Under the pieces are notes generated by a model. The model had not been told where the DNA came from, did not search any database, and was given only the letters and a program-made list of their open reading frames with translations. From an uncultured Opitutia bacterium (lineage in GTDB: Bacteria; Verrucomicrobiota; Verrucomicrobiia; Opitutales; UBA953), in NCBI GenBank assembly GCA_903919185.1, contig CAIXHF010000025.1, positions 1 through 43,567 of the forward strand: a stretch of 43,567 bases of DNA. The letters run 5' to 3'. The translations under genes and the position numbers were made by a program. Of the stretch, positions 31,527 to 32,168 are shown one piece after another (the first letter of the stretch is position 1; every line of letters starts with the position of its first letter).

Positions 31527-31550
31527 AAGGACCCTCTTTCGAGGGTCCTT
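31527..31550 (-). terminator. intrinsic terminator after the ribbon-helix-helix/Lys-tail gene
   Basis: A perfect 10-bp stem AAGGACCCTC / GAGGGTCCTT with a TTTC loop; read leftward it continues into TTCTGTTTC. It lies 57 bases after the stop of the RHH gene and before icd. Confidence 0.7.
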
Positions 31551-31607
31551 GTGTTACCGGGGGTACCGGCGGCCATCCGTCACGAAGGACGGAAAGACTA
31601 GGAAGAA

Positions 31608-31673
31608 TTACTTCTTCTTAGCTTTGGTGGCCTTCTTGGCGCTCTTCTTAGCAGCAGCCTTTTTCTTTGCCAT
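31608..31673 (-). CDS. possible separately translated 21-residue Lys/Ala-rich peptide
   Basis: An ATG at 31673, in frame with the RHH gene, is preceded by AAGGA seven bases upstream, one of the best Shine-Dalgarno sites in the window. It would give MAKKKAAAKKSAKKATKAKKK, about half Lys, resembling tails of histone H1-like nucleoid proteins. The RHH gene itself starts at a GTG without a ribosome site, so this internal start may be the stronger one. Internal initiation is an inference; the tail could equally be only the end of the longer protein. Confidence 0.4.
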   Translation of the reverse strand: MAKKKAAAKKSAKKATKAKKK

Positions 31674-32003
31674 AGTTTTTTCCTTATTTTGGATCGTTGT
31701 TGGGTTAGAGGGCAGCGCCTGAAGCGCCACCCTGACGATTCGCCCTACACTTACCCTGGCGTTGCGCGCCTGACGGGTGATACGAGTGCGGAGCTCCGAC
31801 GGTACGCGGAAAGAAACTTGGCGAGAGCGAGTAGGCTCTAAGGCCGGACGGGCATCATCATAGCAGTCGAGCGCATGACGAATGACTTCACTGAGAGTCG
31901 ACAAACCGGACCGATGCTGAAAGGCGACCGCATCAGAATGGAGCTTCGGGGGAAGCGACACGGTGATCAGGCTTTCGCTGGGGGTTTCGGTTCGGTTCGT
32001 CAC
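31608..32003 (-). CDS. double ribbon-helix-helix DNA-binding protein with Lys-rich tail
   Basis: The 131-residue protein starts at a GTG (32003). Two RHH-like units stand in tandem: residues 11-48 (strand 'SLITVSLPPKL', then two helices) and 61-97 (strand 'RQVSFRVPSEL', then two helices). RHH proteins usually dimerise so that two strands enter the major groove; here one chain could supply both. The last 21 residues, MAKKKAAAKKSAKKATKAKKK, are a histone-H1-like basic tail. That tail begins at an in-frame ATG with a good ribosome site, so it may also be made alone (separate entry). The gene is divergent from a metal-export ATPase and could regulate itself or that gene. No close named family is recognised. 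Confidence 0.7.
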   Translation of the reverse strand: MTNRTETPSESLITVSLPPKLHSDAVAFQHRSGLSTLSEVIRHALDCYDDARPALEPTRSRQVSFRVPSELRTRITRQARNARVSVGRIVRVALQALPSNPTTIQNKEKTMAKKKAAAKKSAKKATKAKKK

Positions 32004-32008
32004 GTTGC

Positions 32009-32025
32009 GGTTAACTCTGGGTTAA
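32009..32025. promoter_or_regulatory. GGTTAA direct repeat next to the RHH gene start (candidate operator)
   Basis: Two GGTTAA copies (32009-32014 and 32020-32025) lie 11 bases apart, one helical turn, six bases upstream of the RHH start codon. RHH repressors usually bind short repeats spaced about one turn apart and often control their own genes. No binding evidence exists; six-base repeats can occur by chance. Confidence 0.3.
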
Positions 32026-32168
32026 GGTGTAGGCATTAATCGCGACTGCGCAAGAGGAATTTTCGTAATCGACGCCGACGGACTTTCGCCGCTCGCAGTT
32101 TCGCCGCCAACAAAATCGTAAACGCAGATTCACTACAGCGACTTTGACTTGTGTTCATCGTAGCGAGA

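What the first reader, a model, noticed from the sequence alone, without database searches (positions are those of the whole stretch)
31608..32003. One chain with two ribbon-helix-helix units and a histone-like polylysine tail, with an internal start for the tail
Seen: two strand-helix-helix RHH patterns in tandem (residues 11-48 and 61-97), then MAKKKAAAKKSAKKATKAKKK. The tail has its own in-frame ATG with AAGGA seven bases upstream, whereas the full-length start is a GTG with no ribosome site. Known: RHH repressors act as dimers with one unit per chain; H1-like Lys/Ala tails bind DNA without sequence preference. Inference: the gene may make two products, a sequence-specific single-chain pseudo-dimer with a sticky tail and a free basic peptide, from one frame.
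Basis: partly seen in the sequence, partly recalled or inferred. Interest (0 to 1): 0.62.

Follow-up and report, generated by a model that had tools for sequence, protein, structure and literature searches.

The report
DNA-binding protein with histone-like tail
This bacterial gene makes one protein chain that folds like a two-part DNA clamp (a double ribbon-helix-helix) with a sticky, histone-H1-like tail; close and distant relatives keep a possible second start site at the tail, so the same gene may also make the tail as a separate tiny protein.

Summary
ORF 31608-32003(-) is real: 131 aa with two strand-helix-helix units (AlphaFold E10-17/H19-32/H37-47 and E61-68/H69-81/H86-95), then a 21-aa Lys/Ala tail that has its own in-frame ATG (31673) and AAGGA seven bases upstream. 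The best PDB match is F-plasmid TraY, a single-chain RHH pseudo-dimer (Z 10.3), so one chain with two units is already a known form. The fusion is not an accident. It is in frame in all 44 genus-level loci where the junction can be read, and homologues with the same layout occur across the order, with tails from about 5 to more than 230 residues. In the genus, AAGGA-ATG is invariant (44/44), and the 11 codons before the ATG show no synonymous change although amino acids there do change. That points to constraint on the nucleotides. A Met at the start of the tail recurs in several other families (f2, f4, f5, f6, f61, f75), but the AAGGA does not: the sister genus lacks it. Most genes here lack a Shine-Dalgarno, so its absence at the GTG means nothing. 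Most likely this is a nucleoid-associated or global DNA-binding protein, with a plausible but unproven second product (the free tail). New variant of known kinds; no expression data exist.

The parts
31608..32003 (-). Whole ORF, 131 aa, GTG start: RHH unit 1, RHH unit 2, linker, Lys/Ala-rich tail
   Evidence: homologues in the same frame
31863..31976 (-). RHH unit 1 (residues 10-47: strand 10-17, helices 19-32 and 37-47)
   Evidence: AlphaFold model; matches RHH_1 by sequence in relatives (L053)
31719..31823 (-). RHH unit 2 (residues 61-95: strand 61-68, helices 69-81 and 86-95)
   Evidence: Pfam RHH_1, 19.6 bits, E 0.0009, just below the gathering cut-off
31674..31745 (-). Residues 87-110: stretch before the tail ATG with strongly suppressed synonymous change (mean difference 0.059 against 0.285 over residues 1-110; none in the last 11 codons)
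31710..31732 (-). Potential 9-bp RNA hairpin inside the coding sequence, ending 36 nt upstream of the tail ATG; arms kept in the sister genus while the loop changes (no compensatory changes, so only suggestive)
31681..31685 (-). AAGGA, Shine-Dalgarno-like, 7 nt before the tail ATG; invariant in 44/44 genus-level loci, absent in the sister genus
31608..31673 (-). Tail with its own in-frame ATG: MAKKKAAAKKSAKKATKAKKK (21 aa); candidate separate small protein
   Evidence: junction Met in other families
31594..31624 (-). RNA hairpin spanning the stop codon, with compensatory changes in its outer stem
31577..31592 (-). Second 3' hairpin, with compensatory changes
31527..31550 (-). Intrinsic terminator of the transcript
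32026..32053 (-). Promoter-like TTGCGC-N16-TACACC, placed the same way in the genus-level loci; implies a short leader with no Shine-Dalgarno before the GTG
   Evidence: read by eye; does not pass the sigma-70 consensus scan

Best explanation
The gene encodes a chromosomal DNA-binding protein: a TraY-like single-chain RHH pseudo-dimer, whose antiparallel two-strand ribbon would sit in the major groove, followed by a disordered Lys/Ala tail that binds DNA through charge. [quoted passage not shown] In addition, ribosomes probably start at the in-frame ATG at the head of the tail and make some free 21-aa basic peptide. Shown by computation: the predicted fold, the conserved fusion, the conserved internal ATG, and constraint on the nucleotides before it. 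Inferred: DNA binding, the nucleoid role, and real initiation at the internal ATG (which I put at about one in two).
For: Fold: (TraY chains Z 8.7-10.3, rmsd 2.7-3.5 over 93-97 residues). Relatives L053 and L082 match RHH_1 in two stretches. The two units plus a K-rich tail are typical of the 38 matching genomes of the order in the class search and the 46 of 103 with the broader profile (sequences). The longer tails match Pfam HC2 weakly (E 3e-5 to 0.014, below cut-off). It is a single copy in conserved chromosomal synteny (P-type ATPase and/or RNase E/G gene, then this gene, icd and a predicted outer-membrane protein), as far as each contig reaches. Internal start: AAGGA-N7-ATG in 44/44 genus-level loci. 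No synonymous change in the 11 codons before the ATG, while 33 minority amino-acid cells occur in residues 99-110 (permutation 0/20000). Met is 11 times enriched at the junction across the order (16/478 against 15/4934 positions, Fisher p 9e-10, rows not independent), is usually followed by Ala or Pro, and lies in fairly accessible RNA (67th to 99th percentile of its transcript).
Against: No expression, DNA-binding or proteomic data. AAGGA is absent in the sister genus L120, and the junction Met is missing in the well-sampled family f3 and in some others. AAG-GAA is an ordinary Lys-Glu pair in a basic linker, and A-rich codons make the site look accessible anyway. The nucleotide constraint could serve another RNA element. 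The species are related, so the statistics overstate independence. Nothing tested shows sequence-specific DNA binding.
Confidence: 0.58

Rival explanations
1. One product only: the RHH-RHH-tail protein. The junction Met is the fossil start codon of a once separate histone-like gene that fused to the RHH gene, and the AAGGA is a coincidence of Lys-Glu codons.
For: The fusion is always in frame. AAGGA is limited to one genus. Met is absent in f3 and others; the tree needs only 6 changes, so the Met is clustered by descent.
Against: It does not explain the lack of synonymous change in the 11 codons before the ATG while amino acids do change, nor why Met followed by Ala or Pro persists beside hypervariable tails in seven families.
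Confidence: 0.35
2. The nucleotide constraint around the junction serves an RNA element (an internal hairpin, processing site or 3'-end-derived small RNA reaching to the terminator) rather than a start codon.
For: A hairpin whose arms are kept while its loop changes in the sister genus. Covarying hairpins downstream, including one across the stop codon (8 pairs changed on both sides, 0/500 shuffles).
Against: Helix 1 has no compensatory change. The tail itself changes synonymously and by whole-codon indels, so it is coding. No Rfam match above chance, and no internal promoter found by the consensus scan.
Confidence: 0.2
3. An antitoxin or plasmid-type RHH regulator (toxin-antitoxin, plasmid copy control or relaxosome protein) that happens to carry a basic tail.
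For: RHH_1 and weak antitoxin or ORF56 family matches; TraY is the nearest fold.
Against: The neighbours are a P-type ATPase gene and icd in conserved synteny in the genus-level loci. There is no evident small partner gene beside it. It is a single copy in its genome and found only in the order and two class genomes of the sample.
Confidence: 0.04

Closest known systems
TraY of the F plasmid relaxosome (PDB 9f10, 9f0x and related; PMC12117103)
   Same: A single chain holding two RHH units folded as a pseudo-dimer; best fold match, Z 10.3, rmsd 2.9 over 94 residues. The paper says F TraY is a monomer with the whole RHH dimer fold in one polypeptide.
   Different: Only about 12% identity, chromosomal setting without conjugation genes, a Lys/Ala tail, and a possible internal start.
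CdbA of Myxococcus xanthus (PMC7156744), an RHH nucleoid-associated protein
   Same: Precedent for an RHH protein that binds genome-wide and organizes the nucleoid rather than acting as a classical transcription factor.
   Different: CdbA is a tetramer with one unit per chain, binds c-di-GMP, and no Lys/Ala tail is described in the passages read.
Histone H1-like tails: chlamydial Hc2 (PF07382) and Lys-rich tails of actinobacterial HU (HupB/HupS)
   Same: Low-complexity Lys/Ala repeats, variable in length; HC2 matches the long tails of relatives weakly.
   Different: Hc2 stands alone and HupS is an HU fold (own knowledge). Here the partner is a tandem RHH, and the window's tail is only 21 residues.
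Rpn genes-within-genes (RpnL/RpnS; PMC10327210)
   Different: Those are toxins with an antitoxin product; here both candidate products would bind DNA, and the internal product is unproven.

Membership tests
Ribbon-helix-helix (CopG/Arc/MetJ) superfamily | Strand-helix-helix unit matching RHH profiles | tested here: met
   All 34 core sequences match RHH_1 at E up to 1, best 1.1e-11; L053 and L082 match above the cut-off with two stretches. The window protein itself scores 19.6-20.4 against a cut-off of 20.5.
Ribbon-helix-helix (CopG/Arc/MetJ) superfamily | Two units packed as an antiparallel ribbon dimer | tested here: met
   Intramolecular in the AlphaFold model: both units align end to end with TraY and single-chain Arc. 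Model confidence is moderate (pLDDT about 80, pTM 0.52).
Ribbon-helix-helix (CopG/Arc/MetJ) superfamily | DNA binding through the ribbon | not testable with these tools
   Needs EMSA or ChIP-seq.
TraY family of conjugation proteins | Single-chain tandem RHH fold | tested here: met
   Z 10.3 to 9f10_E.
TraY family of conjugation proteins | Encoded with a relaxase and oriT | tested here: not met
   Neighbours are a P-type ATPase gene, RNase E/G gene and icd; chromosomal synteny across the genus.
Histone H1-like (Hc1/Hc2) proteins | Match above cut-off to PF07382 or the NCBIfam H1-like models | tested here: not met
   Window: no match. Long-tailed relatives: HC2 up to 24.7 bits against a cut-off of 40; hist_H1_lk_Burk 27.9 against 80.
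Type II antitoxins of RHH type | Adjacent toxin gene | tested here: not met
   No evident small partner ORF beside it; neighbours are housekeeping-type genes.
Gene-within-gene (internal in-frame start) | Conserved internal start codon and initiation signal | tested here: met
   Genus: ATG and AAGGA 44/44. Order: junction Met enriched, AAGGA not conserved.
Gene-within-gene (internal in-frame start) | Separate C-terminal product made in the cell | not testable with these tools
   Needs initiation-site ribosome profiling or N-terminal proteomics.

The most novel reading that the evidence does not exclude
An order-wide chromatin gene that, from one reading frame, makes both a targeted architectural protein (single-chain RHH plus H1-like tail) and a free H1-like protein by internal initiation in a largely Shine-Dalgarno-free translation system, with the tail hypervariable in length between species (about 5 to more than 230 residues).
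Probability: 0.42. Interest if true: 0.72.

Novelty: new variant of a known kind. Interest (0 to 1): 0.5.

Why it matters
Single-chain tandem RHH proteins are known from plasmids, and H1-like tails from HU and chlamydial proteins. The combination as a conserved chromosomal gene of Opitutales-type Verrucomicrobiota was not found in the curated families or papers searched. If confirmed it would be a lineage-specific nucleoid protein, and a test case for how internal starts work where Shine-Dalgarno signals are rare.

Tried and rejected
Separate genes with a stop between them: rejected, no stop or frameshift in any readable junction. An internal sigma-70 promoter for the tail: none found, though the scan is crude and also misses the conserved promoter-like site upstream of the GTG. 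A known RNA family: Rfam hits all at chance level. Toxin-antitoxin or mobile element: no partner, conserved housekeeping synteny. The GTG start as doubtful because it lacks a Shine-Dalgarno: rejected, most starts in the window lack one, and some Verrucomicrobia are reported as SD-scarce (PMC10783764). A pattern search for AAGGA-N5-9-ATGGCNAARAARAARG in 286 class genomes found only the genus plus one hit in a distant family (G012), not followed further. VIA-align and Foldseek listed no solved structure described as RHH plus a K-rich tail; absence there proves nothing. Five literature searches found no description of an RHH protein with an H1-like tail in Verrucomicrobiota. A first automatic cut of the tail boundaries used the wrong RHH unit in several rows and was replaced; even there two rows with a visible junction Met (L051, L131) fall outside the counting window, so 16 is an undercount.

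Full report
WHAT WAS CHECKED. The ORF at 31608-32003 on the minus strand exists as described: 131 codons, GTG start, one internal ATG at 31673 that begins MAKKKAAAKKSAKKATKAKKK, and AAGGA at 31681-31685. It is a single copy in its genome.

STRUCTURE. AlphaFold on 17 homologues gives two consecutive strand-helix-helix units (10-47 and 61-95) at pLDDT about 80 and a disordered tail below 50. The best PDB matches are the TraY chains of the F relaxosome (Foldseek E 2.4e-3; VIA-align Z 10.3, rmsd 2.9 over 94 residues), then DndE, single-chain Arc and AvtR, with VirC2 lower at Z 4.3. The TraY paper states that F TraY holds the whole RHH dimer fold in one polypeptide (PMC12117103). So the pseudo-dimer is well supported as a model, but it is not a new architecture. 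By sequence, unit 2 of the window protein scores just under Pfam's RHH_1 cut-off; all 34 core sequences match RHH_1 and some relatives match with two stretches.

RELATIVES IN THE GENUS. 45 public loci were found. In every one where the junction can be read (44), the RHH part, linker and tail are in one frame with no stop. The exception, L045, has an in-frame deletion that joins RHH1 to the tail. The order P-type ATPase, this gene, icd, predicted outer-membrane protein is kept as far as the contigs reach; in L042 the RNase E/G gene lies next to it instead.

RELATIVES BEYOND THE GENUS. With the genus profile, 40 of 286 class genomes match, 38 of them in the order. With a broader profile, 46 of 103 order genomes match. 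Most of these proteins have two RHH units and a Lys-rich C-terminus, from a few residues (AKKGKK) to more than 230 residues of AKKAAPKK-type repeats; a few weak or divergent members lack a clear tail (for example L118, L128). The fusion is therefore the ordinary state of the family, not an oddity of this genome. Record titles mostly name the genus-level relatives Opitutae, Opitutales or Verrucomicrobiota bacteria.

THE INTERNAL START. Three lines favour it. (a) In the genus, AAGGA and ATG are invariant in 44 of 44 loci. (b) Among 18 dereplicated members, residues 87-110 have a mean synonymous difference of 0.059 against 0.285 over residues 1-110, and the last 11 codons have none, while amino acids in that stretch do change (I/T, Q/P, N/K/T, E/D, K/T, T/P). 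No permutation of codon columns in 20,000 gave a block as low. Constraint on the nucleotides with freedom in the protein is what a translation or RNA signal would produce. (c) Across the order a Met sits at the linker-tail junction far more often than elsewhere in the C-terminal part (16 of 478 against 15 of 4934 positions), typically followed by Ala or Pro as at true N-termini, in f1 (three genera), f2, f4, f5, f6, f61 and f75. These sites are among the more accessible parts of their transcripts.

Three cautions. The AAGGA is limited to the genus, and the sister genus L120 has the ATG in a Shine-Dalgarno-free context. Family f3 and several others have no junction Met; the tree needs at least 4 to 6 changes of this character. 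And Lys-Glu codons easily look like AAGGA. Most genes in the window have no Shine-Dalgarno, and some Verrucomicrobia are listed as SD-scarce (PMC10783764), so a site without one can still start translation, and the plain GTG is not suspicious.

THE 3' END. The transcript ends in a set of hairpins: one spanning the stop codon, a second with compensatory changes, and an intrinsic terminator. On 20 sequences the proposed pairs covary more than in any of 500 shuffles; the shuffles do not allow for relatedness. The hairpin inside the coding sequence upstream of the tail has nearly invariant arms but no compensatory changes, so it is only suggestive. The role of these structures is unknown; stability or regulation of the message is the simplest reading.

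HOW IT MOST LIKELY WORKS. The pseudo-dimer places the ribbon on DNA, and the tail adds charge-based affinity and perhaps bridging. An RHH protein that organizes the nucleoid is known (CdbA, PMC7156744), and Lys-rich tails play that part on HU and in chlamydial histone-like proteins (own knowledge; weak HC2 matches to the long tails). I judge a nucleoid-associated or global regulator role most likely, but nothing here measures binding. Whether a free tail peptide is made is about even odds.

NOVELTY. Each part is known: single-chain RHH, H1-like tails, and separately translated C-terminal parts (Rpn proteins, PMC10327210, abstract seen). The combination, its spread through the order and the conserved junction start were not found in the families and papers searched. 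I file it as a new variant of a known kind.

Noticed in passing
window 31594-31624 and 31577-31592 (minus strand): A hairpin across the stop codon and a second 3' hairpin covary between species and lead to a conserved terminator at 31527-31550.
   Followed up: partly
L045:3001-3201: One metagenome genome carries an in-frame deletion that leaves RHH unit 1 joined directly to the tail (66 aa); it could be real or an assembly error.
   Followed up: no
window 31980-32053 (minus strand): A promoter-like TTGCGC-N16-TAnnnn and the block GTTAACCGCAACGTGACGAACCGAACC around the GTG are nearly invariant across the genus, including third codon positions; possibly promoter plus operator.
   Followed up: partly
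L052, L058, L059, L060, L067, L070: The tails of distant family members are long, hypervariable Lys/Ala/Pro/Val repeats, with lengths differing several-fold even within a family.
   Followed up: no
L053:1861-3108: In several family f3 genomes the gene lies just upstream of an ORF that looks like an aspartate aminotransferase (read by eye, not searched), unlike the icd neighbour in the window.
   Followed up: no
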